DNA of 12,431 nucleotides from the NCBI GenBank assembly GCA_946410525.1, contig CAMKAQ010000011.1:1-12431 (forward strand), read 5' to 3'. Position numbers and translations under genes: made by a program. The notes beneath the pieces are model-generated. The model searched no databases. It worked only from the letters and a program-made list of their open reading frames with translations, and was not told the origin of the DNA. Position 1 is the stretch's first letter. The number at the start of each line of letters is the position of its first letter. Shown here piece after piece: positions 25 to 9,626 of the stretch. The stretch is from an uncultured Caryophanales bacterium (GTDB lineage: Bacteria; Bacillota_I; Bacilli_A; RFN20; CAG-826).

Positions 25-1059
25 TTAGCTTAAGAAGCAAGAAGCGTCAAAGGTTAGAGCAGCACCAAGAGCGCTGTTGAAACCGTTGGCGACAGCGGCG
101 TTATCAGTCACGTCGCTAGAAGCAAGATAAGCAAGCTTATTCTGACCGACGACCTGCTGAAGGTTGATCATGGTTGAAGGGACGCCGAAGCGGGCTTGGG
201 AGTCTCCTCCTTTGTCCTCATAGGCTTTGACGGCAGAGACAGCGACAGAGGCGTTGCTCTTGACGTTATCGATTCTGGTCTGGGTTTCGCTTAACCAAGT
301 GTCGATTTCGGCTTTCTTGGTCTCGTAGGCAGCGTTGCTGACAAAGATAGCAGCGGCTGGGACCTTGGCACCGTCATGGGCGGCAGCGAATTCGGTCTGG
401 ATGTTATAGATAACATTGAGGGTCTTGTTCTGCTGCTTGTACTGAGCCTGAACAGCGGTTAAGACTGGTTCAGCGACGACATAGTAATCGAAGGCGTCTG
501 GATCAGAGCCAAGAAGGTGGGTTCTGACATCGGCGACACCCTTTTCATAGGTGATGGCGGCATCTGGATCGGTTCCATCGCCATATTCGCCCCAGTTCCA
601 TTTGTTTTTGGCAAGGTCACGGAAAGCTTTGGAGGCGTTGCCGGTGCTGACGAAAGCGTTGACGCTTGGTTTGGAACCGGCGGCGACAGCTTCTTGAGCG
701 GTATGTTTGGTGGAGACGACATAGAAGGAGCCTTCGTTGATCCACTTGGCAAGCTTGTAGGCTCTATTCATGTTCTTGATCATGGTGAGGCCAGAGACAC
801 CGTCAAAGACGATGGCGTCATAGGAAGCACTTGCGAAAGCGCCTGGGATGACGCTTTCTGGGGTGGCGGTAGAAAGCCACTTGTCATTCTCACCCTGGTC
901 ATAGAAGGCAAGGGTTGGGGATCCGGTTGGGCTGACCCAGGTTACGGATTCGGAAGTGACTGGAGCAGAGGAAGCTTCTTTAGAAGATTCGACTGGGGTT
1001 GTGCCACAGGAAGCAAGAAGTCCTGCAGCGATTATGATTGTGAGCAATTGTTTTTTCAT
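25..1059 (-). CDS. ABC-type substrate-binding lipoprotein (NMT1/SsuA-like fold)
   Basis: Predicted 344-aa exported lipoprotein that would bind a small solute outside the membrane for an ABC importer. The N-terminus MKKQLLTIII is followed by a hydrophobic stretch and the lipobox L15-A-S-C18, so C18 is the likely lipidated residue. The body resembles type II periplasmic-binding proteins of the NMT1/SsuA/ThiY kind: an early G-x-P-x-L-A-F-Y segment, a Y-D-A-I-V-F-D-G strand and a V-V-A-E-P-V-L-T-A motif in the second lobe. The start was set at 1059, not at the upstream in-frame ATG at 1098, because this gives a proper signal peptide with GGAGG (1070-1074) exactly 10 nt upstream. A possible next gene may begin with ATG at 14-12, 10 nt after the stop, but only 4 codons are visible. 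The substrate is not recognisable. It is divergent from the Crp-family gene and shares its operator. Confidence 0.75.
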   Translation of the reverse strand: MKKQLLTIIIAAGLLASCGTTPVESSKEASSAPVTSESVTWVSPTGSPTLAFYDQGENDKWLSTATPESVIPGAFASASYDAIVFDGVSGLTMIKNMNRAYKLAKWINEGSFYVVSTKHTAQEAVAAGSKPSVNAFVSTGNASKAFRDLAKNKWNWGEYGDGTDPDAAITYEKGVADVRTHLLGSDPDAFDYYVVAEPVLTAVQAQYKQQNKTLNVIYNIQTEFAAAHDGAKVPAAAIFVSNAAYETKKAEIDTWLSETQTRIDNVKSNASVAVSAVKAYEDKGGDSQARFGVPSTMINLQQVVGQNKLAYLASSDVTDNAAVANGFNSALGAALTFDASCFLS

Positions 1060-1081
1060 AGTTGGATATCCTCCGCTCGCA

Positions 1082-1087
1082 ATTATA
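1082..1087 (-). promoter_or_regulatory. -10 box of the substrate-binding lipoprotein gene
   Basis: A perfect TATAAT reads on the minus strand from 1087 to 1082. It predicts a transcription start near 1074-1076, right before the GGAGG at 1070-1074. No TTGACA-like -35 box lies 16-18 bp upstream. That space is occupied by the TGTGA palindrome, which suggests an activator-dependent promoter. Confidence 0.5.
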
Positions 1088-1108
1088 GGTGTATGCATAT
1101 ATGATTAA

Positions 1109-1124
1109 TGTGATATATGTCACA
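1109..1124. promoter_or_regulatory. Crp-type operator TGTGA-TATATG-TCACA
   Basis: The perfect 5-bp arms TGTGA and TCACA, spaced by 6 bp, match the classical Crp consensus, with AA on the left flank and TT one base further out on the right. The site contains the ATG start codon (1117-1119) of the adjacent Crp-family gene. It is centred at 1116.5, about 41.5 bp upstream of the start predicted from the divergent -10 box. Inference: the regulator represses its own gene here and activates the lipoprotein gene from a class II position. Confidence 0.7.
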
Positions 1125-1710
1125 GTTAGATAATATTTTTAACATTCTCGAAAAAGACGAGATCGCCCTCTGGAAAAAGAAGGAGCTTCCAAAGGAAGCC
1201 ATCCTCTTCAAAGAAGGCGAGGAATGCGCGGAAGTCGGCATTGTCGTCGAAGGCCAACTTGTCATTTCTTCCTACTCATATGGTGGAAAAGAAATCGTCT
1301 ATAACCTCATCGGCCCTGGCTCAATGTTTGGCAATAACCTCCTCTACGCGGACGACAAACGCTACAAAGGCAACGTAGTCGCCAAAAAGAAGACGACCCT
1401 TTATCTCATCCATAAGACTTCCCTAATGAAGCTCTTAGCCCAGAATCCGAAGTTCTTAGAGTTCTTTCTCTCCACCGCTTCAAACAAAGTCAAAGACCTC
1501 AATGCCAGGGTGAGGCTTCTCTCATTCCAGGTTCTTGAGGAAAGGCTCATGTTCCTCATACATGAAAACAAAGGCGTTCTCCCCTACGTCTCAATCACCT
1601 CTTTGGCGAGCGAACTAGGTGCTGAAAGAGAAACCCTTTCTAGACTTGTTTCACGGTTATCTAGAGAAGGGACGATTAAAAAAGAGAAGCACCGATTAAT
1701 TGCCCTTTAG
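1117..1710 (+). CDS. Crp/Fnr-family transcriptional regulator
   Basis: 197-aa DNA-binding regulator, slightly shorter than typical family members (about 210-230 aa). Residues about 15-115 form a cyclic-nucleotide-binding-type beta-roll, with G34-E-E, V44-E-G and a G66-P-G turn. Residues about 130-195 form a helix-turn-helix of the Crp type. The recognition helix R171-E-T-L-S-R176 keeps the Arg, Glu and Arg that in E. coli CRP (R180, E181, R185) read TGTGA, which fits the operator over its start codon. The phosphate-binding cassette is degenerate: G68-S-M-F-G replaces G-E-L, and there is no R-S-A. C37 is the only cysteine, so neither cAMP binding nor an Fnr-type Fe-S cluster is likely, and the ligand is unknown. 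A stop (1111-1113) immediately precedes the ATG, so no earlier in-frame start exists. No Shine-Dalgarno is visible, so the transcript may be nearly leaderless. Confidence 0.88.
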   Translation: MSQLDNIFNILEKDEIALWKKKELPKEAILFKEGEECAEVGIVVEGQLVISSYSYGGKEIVYNLIGPGSMFGNNLLYADDKRYKGNVVAKKKTTLYLIHKTSLMKLLAQNPKFLEFFLSTASNKVKDLNARVRLLSFQVLEERLMFLIHENKGVLPYVSITSLASELGAERETLSRLVSRLSREGTIKKEKHRLIAL

Positions 1711-2553: not shown

Positions 2554-4356
2554 TTACTTAACTTCTGGATACTTCTCGCGGTTGGCCACGTAGGTGGTGT
2601 GGAGGAGTTCTTCAGCAAGCTCGCTGCATGGTTCGCCAAGGTAGTCCTTGTAAACCTTGATGATGTCAGGGTTGTTATGGGACTGACGGATGGCGCACTT
2701 CTCGTCGATGGAGTAGAGAATAGCAGCTCTCTTCTCGCGGTAGGTCTCAAGGATGTCAGCGCCTTCCTCTGGTTTGAGGTTTGGCTTGACGAATGGCTGA
2801 CCACCGCCGTTGATGCAGCCGCCTGGGCAGCCCATGATCTCGATGAAGTGATATGGGGACTTGCCTTCTTTGATCTGGTCGAGAAGGACTTTGGCGTTCT
2901 TCATGCCAGAGGCGATGGCGACTTTGACCTTAAGGCCGTTGATTTCGACTTCGGCTTCTTTGACGGCATCAAGGCCTCTGCAGGCTTTGAAGTCGATTGG
3001 GCCGAATTCTTTTCCGGTCAAGGTGTGGTAAGCGGTACGGAGAGCGGCTTCCATGACACCACCGGTGACACCGAAGATTGGGGCAGCACCAGTGTATTGT
3101 CCGAGAAGGTCCTGATCGAACTCTTCTTCTGGAAGCTCTCTGAAGACGATGCCAGCGCGTTTGATCATCGCGGCGAGCTCACGAGTGGTGATGACGGCAT
3201 CAACATCCGGTAAGCCTTCGGCGTTGGCGTTCTGAGGACGCTTGGCTTCATATTTCTTCGCGGTGCAAGGCATAACGGAGACGACATAGATGTTCTTTGG
3301 GTCAAGGTTATGGGCTTTGGCGAAGTAGCTCTTGATGATAGCGCCTTCCATTTCGTGTGGGGACTTGCAAGTCGAGACGTTTGGAATGCACTGTGGGTAG
3401 TAGTACTCGAGGTAATTGATCCAACCTGGGGAGCAGGAAGTGATCTGTGGGAGGACACCGCCTTTGGTGATACGGTTAACAAGCTCCTGGGACTCTTCCA
3501 TGATGGTAAGGTCAGCAGCGAAGTTGGTATCGAAGACGCGGTCGAAGCCGAGTCTGTGGAGGGCGGCGACCATCTTACCGGTGGCATTGAGCTCACCGAT
3601 CTTGTAGCCGAATTCCTCAGCAAGGGCGGCACGGACGGCTGGAGCGGTCTGGACGACGACGAACTTGCCTTCCGCTTTGGCCTTGTCGACGCAGGTGATT
3701 TCGCGTTTCTCGCTTAAGGCACCAGTTGGGCAGACATTGACGCACTGGCCGCACTGGATGCATGGGACATGGGCGAAGGAACGATCGGCGATTGGGGAGA
3801 CGAAGGTGTTGAAGCCACGTTTCTCGAAGCCGAGGATGCCGATTCCCTGAGCTTCTTTGCAGCGCTCGATGCAGCGGCCGCAGAGAATGCACTTAGAGGA
3901 ATCACGGATGATGCCAGGAGCGATTTCGTCTTTGTGGACCTCGGTCTTGGAGCCTTTGAAGGCACCTGGGCGAGCTCCGACGATGGAAGCGACCTCATAG
4001 AGTTCGCAATGTCCGTTTTTGACGCAGGCTTGGCAATCCTGGTTATGGTTGGAAAGAAGAAGTTCGACGCTTGCGCGGCGGGCTTCAACTGCCATTGGGG
4101 ATGAGATTTTGATGACGAAGCCTTTCTCGGCTGGGACATCGGCGACTGGGTAGACGCAAGAAGCGAAGAGTCTGCCACCACGGGCGGTAGCGATCTCAAC
4201 TAAGCAAACACGGCAGGAGGCAAGGGAATTGTGGCCGCCTTTCCAGTAGCAAAGAGTTGGGATGTTGTAACCGACTGAACGAGCGGCTTCGAGGACCGTT
4301 AAGCTCTTATCGACTTCATAGATATGGCCTTCGATATTGATTTTGATTGTTTCCAT
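2554..4356 (-). CDS. hydA: [FeFe] hydrogenase catalytic subunit HydA
   Basis: 600-aa catalytic subunit of a trimeric cytosolic hydrogenase (2H+ + 2e- <-> H2). Domains in order: [2Fe-2S] ferredoxin (C36, C48, C51, C67); His-Cys3 [4Fe-4S] motif (H104, C108, C111, C117); two [4Fe-4S] clusters (C156, C159, C162, C166 and C199, C202, C205, C209); H-cluster domain with L1 TSCSPGW (306-312), L2 MPCTAKKYE (362-370) and L3 E-I-M-G-C-P-G-G-C (506-514, then GGGQP). The predicted H-cluster ligands are C308, C364, C510 and C514. A small-subunit-type helical region follows from about 540 to 595. The L1 loop has Ser309 where standard enzymes have the proton-transfer Cys (TSCCP). It is shorter than Thermotoga HydA and has no extra C-terminal [2Fe-2S] domain. 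GGAGG sits 10 nt before the ATG and 17 nt separate it from hydB. Maturases HydE, HydF and HydG are not in the window. Confidence 0.95.
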   Translation of the reverse strand: METIKINIEGHIYEVDKSLTVLEAARSVGYNIPTLCYWKGGHNSLASCRVCLVEIATARGGRLFASCVYPVADVPAEKGFVIKISSPMAVEARRASVELLLSNHNQDCQACVKNGHCELYEVASIVGARPGAFKGSKTEVHKDEIAPGIIRDSSKCILCGRCIERCKEAQGIGILGFEKRGFNTFVSPIADRSFAHVPCIQCGQCVNVCPTGALSEKREITCVDKAKAEGKFVVVQTAPAVRAALAEEFGYKIGELNATGKMVAALHRLGFDRVFDTNFAADLTIMEESQELVNRITKGGVLPQITSCSPGWINYLEYYYPQCIPNVSTCKSPHEMEGAIIKSYFAKAHNLDPKNIYVVSVMPCTAKKYEAKRPQNANAEGLPDVDAVITTRELAAMIKRAGIVFRELPEEEFDQDLLGQYTGAAPIFGVTGGVMEAALRTAYHTLTGKEFGPIDFKACRGLDAVKEAEVEINGLKVKVAIASGMKNAKVLLDQIKEGKSPYHFIEIMGCPGGCINGGGQPFVKPNLKPEEGADILETYREKRAAILYSIDEKCAIRQSHNNPDIIKVYKDYLGEPCSELAEELLHTTYVANREKYPEVK

Positions 4357-4373
4357 TGTTCGTCAACCTCCTT

Positions 4374-6248
4374 TTATTCGTGGCTGATGGCACCGAACTT
4401 ACAGGTAGCCATACAGGTTCCACACTTGATGCACTTGCTCTGGTCGATGACGTATGGTTCCTTGCCTGGGACGCCTTTGATGCAGCTGACAGGGCAAGCA
4501 CGGGAGCAAGCGGAGCACTTCTTGCACTTCTCTGGGTCGATGTAGTACTTGGAGAGTGACTTACAGACGTGGGCTGGGCACTTCTTGTCTTGGATGTGAG
4601 CGAGATACTCATCATAGAAGTTAGCCATGGTGCTGCTGATTGGGTTGGCAGCGGTCTGGCCAAGTGCGCAGAGGGAGTTGTTTTTGGTGATCTTGGCAAG
4701 CTCTTTGAGTTCGTCAAGGGTTTCCATGGTGCCGCGGCCTTCGACGATCTCGGTGAGGAGTTCGTAGATGCGCTTGGTACCGATACGGCATGGGGAGCAC
4801 TTACCGCAGGACTCGTCGCAGATGAAATCCATATAGAATCTCGCGACGTCGACCATACAGTTGTCTTCGTCCATGACGATGGCGCCGCCGGAGCCCATCA
4901 TGGAGCCGCGAGCGACTAAGGTATCGAAATCGATTTCAGTATCGAGGTCTTTCTCGGTTAAGCAACCGCCGGAAGGACCACCGGTCTGAATGGCTTTGAA
5001 TTTCTTGTTGCCTGGGATGCCACCGCCGATGTCATAGATAAGGGAGCGTAAGGTAGTTCCCATTGGGACTTCGACGAGACCGACGTTGTTGATCTTTCCG
5101 CCAAGAGCGAAGACCTTGGTTCCTTTGGAGCCTGCGGTTCCGACTTTGGCATATTCAGCAGCGCCAACACGGATGATATATCCGACCTGGGCAAGAGTCT
5201 CAACGTTGTTGACACAGGTTGGTTTTCCCCAAAGACCTTTGACGGCTGGGAATGGTGGACGTGGACGTGGCATACCACGTTTTCCTTCGATGGAATTAAG
5301 AAGAGCGGTTTCCTCACCACAGACAAAGGCGCCAGCGCCAAGTCTTAAGTGGCAACGGAAGCTGAAGCCGGTGCCAAGGATGTTGTCACCGAGTAAGCCA
5401 GCTTTTTCCATCGCGTCGATGGCGTGGAGTAAACGCTGGACAGCGATTGGATATTCAGCACGGACATAGAAGTAACCTTCGTTGGCGCCATAGGCGTAAC
5501 CAGCGATCATCATACCTTCGATGACCTCGAATGGGTTGGCTTCTAAGATGGAACGGTCCATGAATGCGCCTGGGTCGCCTTCGTCGCCGTTGCAGACGAC
5601 GTATTTCTTGTCGCTCTTGACGTTAGCGGCAAACTGCCATTTGCGGCCAGTTGGGAATCCACCGCCACCACGGCCACGGAGACCGGAAGCGATGATTTCG
5701 TCGATGACCTCCTGAGGGGTCATTTCGGTTAAGACCTTCTTCAAAGCCTTGAAGCCATCGTAGCCAAGGGATTCTTCAAGAAGATCTGGGTTGATAACGG
5801 AGCAGCCATGGAGGGCGATACGTTTTTGTTTTTTGTAGAAGTTGATGTCGTCCATTCTAGCGACCTTCTCGTGGGTCTGTGGATCGACATAAAGAAGATC
5901 TTCGACGATCTTGCCGTTGATGAGGTCTTCCTCAACGATACGTTCAACATCGGTAACCTTAACGGCACGGTAGAGAGTATCTTCTGGGTAAATCTTAACG
6001 AATGGGCCTTGGGAGCAGAAACCGAAGCAACCGACGTGGTTGACGCTGATTCTGTCGCTGAGGCCTTTCTCTTTGATGAGTGCCTCAAGTTTTTCGATGA
6101 TTTCTTTGCTGTTGTTGGCTAAGCAACCAGTACCACCGCAGACAAGGATGGCGCGCTTGCCGCCTTTTCCGGTGATCTTGGCACTGAGCTTCTCCGTACA
6201 CTCGGAGATTTTTTGATCTAATAATTCAGGGCTGGTAATCTTTTCCAT
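4374..6248 (-). CDS. hydB: Bifurcating hydrogenase NAD(P)H/FMN subunit HydB (NuoF-like)
   Basis: 624-aa diaphorase subunit carrying FMN and the NAD(P)H site, expected to form the electron-bifurcating core with HydC. Domains in order: thioredoxin-like [2Fe-2S] (C37, C42, C74, C78); NuoF core with the nucleotide motif G192-R-G-G-G-G-F-P-T-G, the flavin segment C219-N-G-D-E-G-D-P-G and G304-A-G-A-F-V-C-G-E-E-T; an SLBB-like stretch; the N3-type [4Fe-4S] ligands C481, C484, C487 and C527; and a C-terminal two-cluster ferredoxin domain (C575, C578, C581, C585 and C606, C609, C612, C616). This fused layout is that of HydB of Thermotoga/Acetobacterium-type HydABC, not the split HndB + HndC. The start has GGAGG 10 nt upstream (6259-6263), inside the end of hydC, and only 2 nt separate the genes. 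NADH versus NADPH preference cannot be told from the sequence. Confidence 0.95.
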   Translation of the reverse strand: MEKITSPELLDQKISECTEKLSAKITGKGGKRAILVCGGTGCLANNSKEIIEKLEALIKEKGLSDRISVNHVGCFGFCSQGPFVKIYPEDTLYRAVKVTDVERIVEEDLINGKIVEDLLYVDPQTHEKVARMDDINFYKKQKRIALHGCSVINPDLLEESLGYDGFKALKKVLTEMTPQEVIDEIIASGLRGRGGGGFPTGRKWQFAANVKSDKKYVVCNGDEGDPGAFMDRSILEANPFEVIEGMMIAGYAYGANEGYFYVRAEYPIAVQRLLHAIDAMEKAGLLGDNILGTGFSFRCHLRLGAGAFVCGEETALLNSIEGKRGMPRPRPPFPAVKGLWGKPTCVNNVETLAQVGYIIRVGAAEYAKVGTAGSKGTKVFALGGKINNVGLVEVPMGTTLRSLIYDIGGGIPGNKKFKAIQTGGPSGGCLTEKDLDTEIDFDTLVARGSMMGSGGAIVMDEDNCMVDVARFYMDFICDESCGKCSPCRIGTKRIYELLTEIVEGRGTMETLDELKELAKITKNNSLCALGQTAANPISSTMANFYDEYLAHIQDKKCPAHVCKSLSKYYIDPEKCKKCSACSRACPVSCIKGVPGKEPYVIDQSKCIKCGTCMATCKFGAISHE

Positions 6249-6250
6249 TG

Positions 6251-6733
6251 TTATTTCGCCTCCTGATTACGGAATTCATCGAGAATCTTCTCGACGTCTT
6301 TGGACTCGACGCGTGGGAAGACCTTGCCATTGACCGAAACGGCAGTCGCAAGAGCGCAAGCGCCCATGCAACGGACAGCCTCGATGGTGAAGAGTCCATC
6401 TTCGGTGGTCTGACCTGGCTGGATCTTAAGAACAGCGCACATCTTGTCCAAGACGGCCTGGGCGTTCTTGACGTAGCAAGCGGTGCCTAAGCAGACGTGG
6501 ATAACGTATTTTCCTTTTGGGGTGAGCGAGAAGAAAGAGTAGAAGGTCACAACGCCGTAGATCTCGGCAGCTGGGACTCCGGTTTCTTCAGAGATGACTT
6601 CCTGTAGCTCAACAGGAACATAGCCATACTTCTCCTGGACTTCTTCCAGAATGACAATCAACGGAGAAGGTTCGTCTTTGTGCTTTTGACAAATCTCTCG
6701 GACGTCTTTGATGACTTCAAGACGGATTTTCAT
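6251..6733 (-). CDS. hydC: Bifurcating hydrogenase [2Fe-2S] subunit HydC (NuoE-like)
   Basis: 160-aa thioredoxin-like subunit with one [2Fe-2S] cluster, the first gene of the hydC-hydB-hydA operon. The N-terminal helical part includes the family-typical E-K-Y-G-Y-V-P (34-40) and G-V-V-T-F-Y-S-F-F (60-68). The cluster ligands are C81-L-G-T-A-C86 and C122-M-G-A-C126. Length matches NuoE/HydC (about 160 aa). The start was placed at the ATG at 6733; an in-frame TTG at 6763 would add ten atypical residues and overlap the GGAGG. That GGAGG (6757-6761) is 23 nt from the ATG, too far for normal use, but a 13-nt hairpin (CGCC-GTTAA-GGCG) lies between and would reduce the distance to 10 nt. It is co-transcribed with hydB. 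Confidence 0.93.
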   Translation of the reverse strand: MKIRLEVIKDVREICQKHKDEPSPLIVILEEVQEKYGYVPVELQEVISEETGVPAAEIYGVVTFYSFFSLTPKGKYVIHVCLGTACYVKNAQAVLDKMCAVLKIQPGQTTEDGLFTIEAVRCMGACALATAVSVNGKVFPRVESKDVEKILDEFRNQEAK

Positions 6734-6761
6734 GTTTGCGTATCGCCTTAACGGCGCCTCC
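6734..6761 (-). promoter_or_regulatory. Displaced Shine-Dalgarno with bridging hairpin before hydC
   Basis: On minus: GGAGG (6761-6757), then stem CGCC, loop GTTAA, stem GGCG (6756-6744), then a 10-nt spacer and ATG. Folding the hairpin leaves exactly the 10-nt GGAGG-to-ATG spacing seen at hydB, hydA and the substrate-binding lipoprotein gene. This is inference from sequence only. Confidence 0.5.
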
Positions 6762-6805
6762 AAATTTTCAACATTGCCTTTTAGTATCTAAAAGAAATGC
6801 AACTA

Positions 6806-7754: not shown

Positions 7755-9626
7755 ATGTCCGTGGAAAACATTAACATTGCCCTCTTGACTGAGGGTTGGA
7801 CGCGATTCTCTTTGATGTCCTCTTTAAAGGGCATGTTCGCAAGAGCTAAGGAGCGTGGCATAGAATTATTTGTCACCCAATTTTGCTCTTTTGGCGAAGC
7901 TGCCCGTGAGGCCGTTTTTAACCAAGGCGAATATTCAGTCTACAATTTGGTCGATACAAGCTACTTCGATGCGATCATTTTAGATGTCTCAGACATGCCT
8001 AATAGCGAGATCGACGCCCGCATCTTCCCTCTTATTAGAAAAGCCAACATTCCAATACTTGCCCTCGATAGCAAATTCCCTGGCATCCATTCATTTGGTC
8101 AAAACAACAAAAAATCCATCGAAGAAATGATGGATCACTTATATAACAAGCACAAAGTCAGAAGCTTTGCTTTCTTTGGTGGCCCTAGTGCCAACTTTGA
8201 GGCCAACGCAAGGGCCCGCGCTTATGCCGATTCTTTGGCCCGCTTTGACCTAGGCCTAATCGATAACCCTATCTACGCTGGCAACTTCGAGTATGATTCT
8301 GGTTTCAGAAACATGGAGAAGCTCATCAATGAGAGAGAAGGCAAACTCCCAGGAGCCATCGTCTGCGCTAACGACCGTATCGCCATCGGCGCTCTTGAAG
8401 CAGCCAAAAAGCACGGCTACAAATGTCCAGAGGATTTCCGTATCACCGGTTTCGATAACTACGGCCAAGCTGAGCGTTATTCCCCTCAGATCACCACTGT
8501 TGGAATTGACCGCTTCCAAGCTGGCAAAAAGATGATCGATGTCGTTCTAGACTTAATCAAAGGCAAAGATGTCCCAGAATTCACCTACATTGATGGTGAA
8601 ATGGTTTACCGCGAATCCTGCGGATGTGGTAGTGAAGCTGCTTTGGATTATCGTAAATACGCGATGGACAGCGTTCTTAGCGACTTCAAGAACGACTACA
8701 AGGTCAACCGCATGACTTCCCTCATCGCGAACCTTTCCTTGCTCAATAACTTCGAAGGCTATTTCAAAACCTTAGCCGATTACCCATACTTCAAGGAAGT
8801 TGAATCGGTCCTTGTCTCAGTCGATAAGGGCTTGTTCCGCCCTGGAACTTCAAGTTTCTCATCTAAACGAGTTCCAATCGACCGCGAAGTTGTCGCCCTT
8901 TATTTCAAGAATGGGGAGCAAGAACACGTTGACTCAATCAAGGAAGTCAAAAAACGTCAAGTCAAAGACTGCAAAAACAAAGTTGCTTTCGTCAGCGCGC
9001 TTCACTTCGGAAAGGATGTTGTCGGTTATATCATCGTCAGAGAGAATTCCGACAAGATTCTCCTCCCAGATTTCGTCGATGCGAGATCCCGTTTCATCTT
9101 CCAAGCCGAATCCCTTTATAGGACCATGAAGTACTCAGAGCTTTCTAAGACTTTGAGTGAGCTATATAACAACGATCAGTTGACCGGTATCCACAACCGC
9201 ATCTTCTTTGACGAAGAGATGGTTCCTGCCTTCGACAGACTCGTCAAAAAGAAAAAGAGATGCGCGGTCTTCTTCATCGATGCCGACAACTTCAAGAACA
9301 TCAACGATACCTATGGTCACAATAGAGGCGACCTCATCCTTAAGACCATCGCCAAGACCATCGACAAGAATCTCCCAGACAGTGGCGATACTTGTAGGTT
9401 CGGCGGTGACGAGTTCGTCGCTTACTTCCCAGTCACCGACGACGATGAAGCGTATGCCTACGCCAAGAAGGTCGAGAAAGCCCTCCTTGAGAAAGACATC
9501 TCCGTCTCGATCGGTGTTGCCTTCAGTGAAAACGGCACAAGCTTATCCGAGATCGTCAACAACGCCGACAAAGAGATGTACAAAATCAAATTCAAGAAGT
9601 ACGGCGACCGTAGACGTAGCAAATAA
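7755..9626 (+). CDS. PBP1 (LacI-type sensor)-GGDEF diguanylate cyclase
   Basis: 623-aa cytosolic fusion predicted to make cyclic di-GMP from GTP in response to a sugar-like ligand. Residues about 5-280 are a periplasmic-binding-protein type 1 domain as in LacI/GalR regulators (I-A-L-L-T-E-G, V-C-A-N-D-R-I-A-I-G, I-T-G-F-D-N-Y). The N-terminal HTH is absent, and there is no signal peptide or membrane segment. R-E-S-C-G-C-G marks the end of the sensor. Residues about 290-460 are a GAF-like linker region. The GGDEF domain (about 470-615) has D474-Q-L-T-G, the metal aspartates D509-A-D and the signature G550-G-D-E-F554 intact, so it is likely active. The RxxD inhibitory site is missing (P541-D-S-G). 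GTG at 7761 is an alternative start favoured by promoter P2. Such fusions are known in anaerobic Bacillota and spirochaetes. The ligand is unknown. Confidence 0.88.
   Translation: MSVENINIALLTEGWTRFSLMSSLKGMFARAKERGIELFVTQFCSFGEAAREAVFNQGEYSVYNLVDTSYFDAIILDVSDMPNSEIDARIFPLIRKANIPILALDSKFPGIHSFGQNNKKSIEEMMDHLYNKHKVRSFAFFGGPSANFEANARARAYADSLARFDLGLIDNPIYAGNFEYDSGFRNMEKLINEREGKLPGAIVCANDRIAIGALEAAKKHGYKCPEDFRITGFDNYGQAERYSPQITTVGIDRFQAGKKMIDVVLDLIKGKDVPEFTYIDGEMVYRESCGCGSEAALDYRKYAMDSVLSDFKNDYKVNRMTSLIANLSLLNNFEGYFKTLADYPYFKEVESVLVSVDKGLFRPGTSSFSSKRVPIDREVVALYFKNGEQEHVDSIKEVKKRQVKDCKNKVAFVSALHFGKDVVGYIIVRENSDKILLPDFVDARSRFIFQAESLYRTMKYSELSKTLSELYNNDQLTGIHNRIFFDEEMVPAFDRLVKKKKRCAVFFIDADNFKNINDTYGHNRGDLILKTIAKTIDKNLPDSGDTCRFGGDEFVAYFPVTDDDEAYAYAKKVEKALLEKDISVSIGVAFSENGTSLSEIVNNADKEMYKIKFKKYGDRRRSK

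What the first reader, a model, noticed from the sequence alone, without database searches (positions are those of the whole stretch)
1074..1124. One Crp-type palindrome serves as start-codon operator and class II activator site
Seen: TGTGA-N6-TCACA with perfect arms contains the ATG of the Crp-family gene, and its centre is 41.5 bp upstream of the start predicted from the divergent TATAAT, which lacks a -35 box. Known: class II Crp-dependent promoters have the site at about -41.5, and the regulator's R-E-T-x-x-R recognition helix matches TGTGA readers. Inference: a two-gene circuit in which the regulator activates the ABC lipoprotein gene and shuts off its own transcription and translation start.
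Basis: partly seen in the sequence, partly recalled or inferred. Interest (0 to 1): 0.7.

Follow-up and report, generated by a model that had tools for sequence, protein, structure and literature searches.

The report
Crp-family switch sharing one operator
In uncultured gut Bacilli one short DNA palindrome very probably lets a Crp-type regulator turn on a neighbouring uptake gene while turning itself down; the layout is strongly conserved, but it is a known kind of switch and its signal is unknown.

Summary
TGTGATATATGTCACA (1109-1124) is the only exact TGTGA-N6-TCACA in the window and in its 1.0-Mb genome. It contains the regulator's ATG (1117), and its centre lies 41.5 bp upstream of the start predicted from the divergent TATAAT (1087-1082).

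All 108 carry YGTRA-N6-TYACR at the regulator start (106 exact, 2 with one mismatch); TANNAT begins exactly 21 bp away, in class II register, in 91 of 108; no -35 is seen. The substrate-binding gene was found in 104 of 108, divergent in all 104. Of 40 genomes with that gene but no regulator, 0 have the palindrome. Losing the Crp Glu181 or Arg185 equivalent goes with TGTGA becoming TGTAA (7 of 7, few evolutionary events).

The start codon inside the operator is local (13 of 108). Activation and autorepression are inferred, not measured. Effector and substrate are unknown; the cAMP-contact residues are replaced.

The parts
1109..1124 (.). Operator palindrome TGTGATATATGTCACA, predicted dimer site of the adjacent regulator
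   Evidence: Only exact copy in window and genome; conserved in 108 of 108 loci; absent in 40 of 40 examined regulator-free genomes
1117..1710 (+). Crp/Fnr-family regulator, 197 aa (cNMP-binding-like domain and Crp HTH, recognition helix RETLSR); the ATG lies inside the palindrome
   Evidence: PF00027 and PF13545 above their cut-offs; fold matches Crp-family structures; 1708-1710 is the stop
25..1059 (-). Divergent lipoprotein, NitT/TauT-type substrate-binding protein (SBP), the predicted activated target
   Evidence: No Pfam or NCBIfam hit for the window's own protein; homologues named NitT/TauT substrate-binding protein; SBP fold
1082..1087 (-). -10 element TATAAT of the SBP promoter, 21 bp from the palindrome
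   Evidence: Sequence; TANNAT at the same distance in 91 of 108 loci
1075..1075 (-). Predicted transcription start of the SBP gene, palindrome centre at -41.5
   Evidence: Inferred from the -10; not mapped
1070..1074 (-). GGAGG, probable ribosome-binding site of the SBP gene
   Evidence: Sequence; inference
1100..1105 (+). TATGAT, candidate -10 of the regulator's own promoter, ending 3 nt before the palindrome; predicted start near 1112
   Evidence: Sequence; TATAAT 3-4 nt before the palindrome in 43 of 108 loci

Best explanation
The palindrome is the operator of the adjacent Crp/Fnr-family regulator and serves two promoters. A regulator dimer bound there sits at -41.5 of the divergent SBP promoter, which has a good -10 and no -35, so the bound regulator should act as a class II activator of the SBP gene. 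The same dimer covers the predicted start of the regulator's transcript (and in this clade its start codon), whose -10 ends about 3 bp before the palindrome, so binding should block the regulator's own promoter. The result is a local, one-operator circuit: uptake gene on, regulator self-limited. Shown by sequence comparison: the site, its register, gene linkage, absence without the regulator, covariation of half-site and helix. Inferred: binding by this protein, activation, autorepression, and control by an unknown, probably non-cAMP effector.
For: Palindrome in 108 of 108 loci, 106 exact, against 5 of 2160 resampled segments. TATAAT at exactly 21 bp in 46 and TANNAT in 91 of 108; the next commonest TANNAT offset has 23. 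After thinning to 69 and 42 regulators, 54 and 34 keep it. No -35: 106 of 108 match TTGACA at 2 or fewer of 6 positions at a 17-bp spacer, none above 3 even over 16-18 bp. SBP divergent in 104 of 104 where found. 0 of 40 examined regulator-free genomes have the palindrome upstream of their SBP homologue. Helix RE...R goes with G at position 4 of both half-sites in 99 of 101; RP...R (6) and RE...S (1) with A in both, as expected from Arg185 and Glu181 of E. coli Crp reading that base pair (passages of PMC11253593). Regulator-strand TATAAT 3-4 nt before the palindrome in 43 of 108.
Against: No binding, transcript-start or expression data. 17 of 108 loci lack TANNAT at exactly 21 bp (of the 42 thinned loci 37 have it at 20-22). 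The regulator's own -10 is weaker evidence: the loose TANNNT is at 3-4 nt in 77 of 108 but also at 22 nt in 53 and at -1 in 33. The half-site change rests on few events (3 changes by parsimony; one origin not excluded). One of ten weaker Crp-like genes has an exact palindrome about 193 nt upstream (G056). The regulator-free SBPs may include paralogues, and the genomes are often incomplete. In G000, 16 of 30 one-mismatch sites were not examined.
Confidence: 0.82

Rival explanations
1. The regulator represses both promoters from the one site; the SBP promoter fires without it and simply has a poor -35.
For: The site also lies close to the SBP promoter and could exclude RNA polymerase. No activation has been measured.
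Against: A repressor site need not keep a fixed helical register, yet the distance is exactly 21 bp in 91 of 108 loci, and a -35 is absent throughout, which is what activator dependence predicts.
Confidence: 0.1
2. The palindrome is the site of another, global Crp-like protein, and the adjacent regulator acts elsewhere.
For: TGTGA-N6-TCACA is read by many Crp-family proteins; one weaker Crp-like gene in another genome (G056) also has an exact copy upstream.
Against: One exact site in G000; palindrome missing where the regulator is missing, 0 of 40; half-site changes with this regulator's helix.
Confidence: 0.05
3. The palindrome is a terminator-like or other dispersed hairpin, not an operator.
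For: In one relative (G181) 11 further copies exist, several between genes beside T runs.
Against: In the window it lies between two divergent starts. Of the 11 extra G181 copies 0 have TANNAT at 21 bp (one has TATAAT at 20 bp but points into the 3' end of an opposed gene), while operator copies mostly do. G181 is exceptional: 20 of the 21 genomes with a match have one or two.
Confidence: 0.02

Closest known systems
Class II Crp(CAP)-dependent promoters, e.g. E. coli gal
   Same: TGTGA-N6-TCACA centred at -41.5, good -10, no -35 (register tested here; class II definition from passages of PMC7192510)
   Different: One dedicated local regulator and, as far as tested, one operator per genome; cAMP-contact residues replaced
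Divergent regulator-target pairs with an autorepressed regulator (e.g. AraC-type divergons, recalled)
   Same: A shared intergenic operator governs target and regulator
   Different: Crp/Fnr family; a single palindrome at both promoters; in this clade it also covers the start codon
T. maritima Crp-family protein 1o5l, P. gingivalis HcpR 9day, Pseudomonas DNR 3dkw
   Same: Best solved relatives by profile: E 3.5e-26, 3.6e-18, 6.1e-16 over nearly the whole protein
   Different: Distant; no evidence for their ligands here
NitT/TauT-type ABC uptake systems (SsuA, TauA, ThiY-like SBPs)
   Same: SBP fold, PF00528 permease next to the SBP in relatives
   Different: 8-15% identity in the 50 fold matches listed; solute unknown; no ATPase gene noticed next to it

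Membership tests
Crp/Fnr superfamily regulator | N-terminal cNMP-binding-like beta-roll and C-terminal Crp-type HTH | tested here: met
   PF00027 58.6 bits (cut-off 27.5), PF13545 29 bits (cut-off 27); Foldseek matches to Crp structures
Crp (TGTGA-reading, R-E-x-x-x-R helix) | RE...R recognition helix with TGTGA half-sites | tested here: met
   RETLSR in the window; RE...R with G in both half-sites in 99 of 101 loci
cAMP receptor protein (Crp proper) | cAMP-contact residues (Glu72, Arg82, Ser83 of E. coli Crp; recalled) | tested here: not met
   These align with Asn, Tyr, Lys in the profile alignment; the Asn pair, Tyr83 and Gly85 are nearly invariant or invariant in the family. NCBIfam Crp equivalog 35 bits against cut-off 266
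Class II Crp-type promoter | Site centred at -41.5 in place of the -35 | tested here: met
   By sequence only: 21 bp to TANNAT in 91 of 108, no -35; transcription start not mapped
Class II Crp-type promoter | Activation by the bound regulator through contacts with RNA polymerase | not testable with these tools
   Needs in vitro transcription
Autorepressed divergon | Regulator represses its own promoter from the shared operator | tested here: inconclusive
   Regulator-strand TATAAT 3-4 nt before the operator in 43 of 108; no expression data
NitT/TauT-type SBP | Lipoprotein signal, SBP fold, linked binding-protein-dependent permease | tested here: met
   Fold; PF00528 in the 3 neighbouring permeases tested in relatives; the window ends before the permease; Pfam gives the window's SBP no family

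The most novel reading that the evidence does not exclude
A deeply conserved, dedicated Crp/Fnr subfamily in an order of uncultured gut Bacilli that controls one operator per genome and senses a non-cAMP signal (family-specific Asn-Asn and Tyr-x-Gly pocket, conserved Cys37), possibly redox or hydrogen metabolism because the HydABC hydrogenase is a recurrent neighbour. In the window's clade the bound dimer also covers a nearly leaderless start codon, so one dimer would gate uptake-gene transcription, its own transcription and, by occluding the start region, its own expression at the very first codon.
Probability: 0.3. Interest if true: 0.55.

Novelty: new member of a known kind. Interest (0 to 1): 0.42.

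Why it matters
It turns a one-window guess into a predicted regulatory circuit with over a hundred examples, an operator rule (RE...R goes with TGTGA, RP...R with TGTAA) and natural regulator-free controls, in bacteria that are hard to grow. It is a compact case of a local Crp/Fnr regulator and its site changing together, and a handle on an unknown uptake system of ruminant gut bacteria. It does not reveal a new principle of gene control.

Tried and rejected
Global-Crp reading rejected: one exact site in G000, absence without the regulator, covariation with the local helix. Larger regulon in G000: of 30 one-mismatch places (reversed control 12) 14 were examined: 0 of 14 have TANNAT at 20-22 bp on either side and 10 of 14 lie in stop-free frames of over 200 codons; the other 16 were not examined. 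Larger regulon in G181: 11 extra sites, 0 with TANNAT at exactly 21 bp; one (G181 C4) has TATAAT at 20 bp but faces the 3' end of an opposed gene. Substrate from fold: the SBP model matches binders of many solutes at 8-15% identity among the 50 listed, so no substrate can be named. Neighbour genes: HydABC in some clades, phosphopentomutase/XerD/DinB-like genes in others (names by eye except HydABC of the window), so neither points clearly to a function. Literature: the searches listed no paper that by title or abstract start treats this regulator; only passages of PMC11253593 and PMC7192510 were read, the rest seen as listings. The first operator-locating routine misplaced L087, L088 and L136 and broke ties towards 21 bp; the counts used here come from the later scan without that preference. 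Rows dropped: of 114 matches of at least 110 bits, six partial ones (G268 twice, G252, G259, G253, G222) were not fetched; the 108 loci come from 107 genomes (G210 twice). L136 (one mismatch, no SBP found) is probably a misplaced site but is counted. The 40 regulator-free genomes are a part of those available.

Full report
What is in the window. The palindrome TGTGATATATGTCACA lies at 1109-1124 and holds the ATG (1117) of a 197-aa protein with a cNMP-binding-like domain and a Crp HTH. A stop lies directly upstream in frame, so this ATG is the first possible start; no Shine-Dalgarno sequence is seen before it. On the other strand a 344-aa lipoprotein begins at 1059, with GGAGG at 1074-1070 and TATAAT at 1087-1082. 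The start predicted from that -10 is 1075, and the palindrome centre is at -41.5. The -35 position reads CATTAA. The window is a whole contig (C11) of a 1.0-Mb, 170-contig genome, so the gene after the lipoprotein is missing here. The eight named relatives found are MAGs labelled Bacilli, Bacillales or Erysipelotrichaceae bacterium, those with a stated source from rumen or reticulum, 86-94% identical in the regulator.

Is it more than chance. The exact pattern occurs once in the window and once in the genome. The family pattern YGTRA-N6-TYACR turned up in 5 of 2160 resampled upstream segments.

Conservation. A regulator profile matched 135 of 279 genomes of the order. I fetched 108 of the 114 matches of at least 110 bits; six partial ones were left out. 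All 108 carry the palindrome between 150 nt upstream and 40 nt downstream of the regulator's start as placed by the profile, 106 exactly and 2 with one mismatch. On the SBP strand TATAAT begins exactly 21 bp after the palindrome in 46 loci and TANNAT in 91. The next commonest TANNAT offset (3 bp) has 23, in the AT-rich stretch that also holds the regulator's own -10 on the other strand. After thinning to 69 (70% identity) and 42 (50%) regulators the count at 21 bp is 54 and 34. In the aligned region the arms carry 1.0-2.0 bits (seven of ten columns above 1.6), the -10 0.6-1.6 bits; one spacer column reaches 1.4, and every column outside the palindrome and the -10 stays below 1. At a 17-bp spacer 106 of 108 match TTGACA at 2 or fewer of 6 positions and 2 at 3; over spacers of 16-18 bp the best is 3 (7 loci). 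An SBP match was found in 104 of 108 fetched stretches, on the opposite strand in all 104.

Controls. Forty genomes of the order with an SBP homologue and no regulator match were examined: 0 of 40 have the palindrome within 250 bp upstream, even with one mismatch. In many of these the SBP follows a gene whose C-terminus looks like phosphopentomutase (by eye). Of ten weaker Crp-like genes, one (G056) has an exact palindrome about 193 nt upstream. In 20 larger contexts (264,372 bp) the pattern occurs 27 times, 20 of them at the regulator.

Regulon. With the narrower pattern YGTGATWNNWATCACR, 21 of 35 genomes had a match, and in all 21 one match is the regulator's operator; the other 14, G000's clade among them, have operators that this pattern misses. 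Extra sites: one in G254, inside a gene, and 11 in G181, none with TANNAT at 21 bp and one with TATAAT at 20 bp pointing at the 3' end of an opposed gene. The reversed-pattern control gave 6 forward matches over the 35 genomes. So far as tested this is a one-operator regulator; in G000 16 of 30 one-mismatch places remain unexamined.

Protein and site change together. Helix type RE...R goes with G at position 4 of both half-sites in 99 of 101 loci; the other two have one G half and one A half (one of them, L136, is probably a misplaced site). RP...R (6) and RE...S (1) go with A in both. In E. coli Crp, Arg185 and Glu181 read the G4:C4 pair (passages of PMC11253593), so losing either should relax exactly this position. 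On a tree of 41 of the 108 regulators the TGTAA rows cluster; parsimony needs 3 changes and a single origin is not excluded, so this is strong in logic but few in events.

Regulator's own promoter. On the regulator strand TATAAT ends 3-4 nt before the palindrome in 43 of 108 loci, against 5 at the next commonest offset. The looser TANNNT does so in 77, but is also common at 22 nt (53) and -1 (33). This puts the regulator's predicted start inside the palindrome. In the window it is TATGAT (1100-1105) with a start near 1112, five bases before the ATG. By the first in-frame ATG, the start codon falls inside the palindrome in 13 of 108 loci, nine of them the window's clade (in L159 a later ATG is as likely). 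In 74 of 108 it follows 2-8 nt after the palindrome. The start codon in the operator is therefore a local tightening of a general plan.

What it probably senses and moves. The residues that contact cAMP in E. coli Crp (recalled) align with Asn, Tyr and Lys, and parts of this altered pocket are nearly invariant in the family, as is Cys37. cAMP is therefore unlikely. The SBP is of the NitT/TauT type with a permease beside it in relatives; the solute cannot be told. Neighbours include the NADH-dependent HydABC hydrogenase in the window and, by eye, in several other clades but not in all.

Mechanism and status. Shown: site, register, absence of a -35, linkage, absence without the regulator, covariation. 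Inferred: binding by this protein, activation of the SBP gene, autorepression, effector control. Class II Crp promoters have the site at -41.5 (passages of PMC7192510). The system works like a class II Crp/Fnr-controlled divergent pair and meets its sequence features; by the residues tested it is not a cAMP receptor. It is a new member of a known kind.

Noticed in passing
window 2557-6763 (-): Three genes of an NADH-dependent [FeFe] hydrogenase (HydA matches NCBIfam group A6 above cut-off) lie convergent to the regulator; a similar trio stands near the regulator in several other clades (by eye).
   Followed up: partly
window 7755-9626 (+): A 623-aa protein joins a LacI-type periplasmic-binding domain to a GGDEF domain: a possible sugar-sensing diguanylate cyclase.
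   Followed up: no
window about 1721-1746 and 2509-2536: Two copies of a 20-bp sequence in opposite orientation, each itself a terminator-like hairpin with a T run (read), flank a lipoprotein-like ORF (1752-2402). No such ORF was called between regulator and hydrogenase in G005 (L044), so it looks like a variable segment.
   Followed up: no
G181 (L196-L206): Eleven extra copies of the operator-like palindrome, several between genes beside T runs, only in this genome among 35 searched.
   Followed up: partly
L209-L248 (regulator-free genomes): The SBP homologue often follows a phosphopentomutase-like gene closely (by eye), as if the regulator were gained or lost at this spot.
   Followed up: partly
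G056 (L038), about 193 nt upstream of a weaker Crp-like gene: An exact TGTGATAAATGTCACA upstream of a Crp-like gene outside the strong set; its role was not examined.
   Followed up: no
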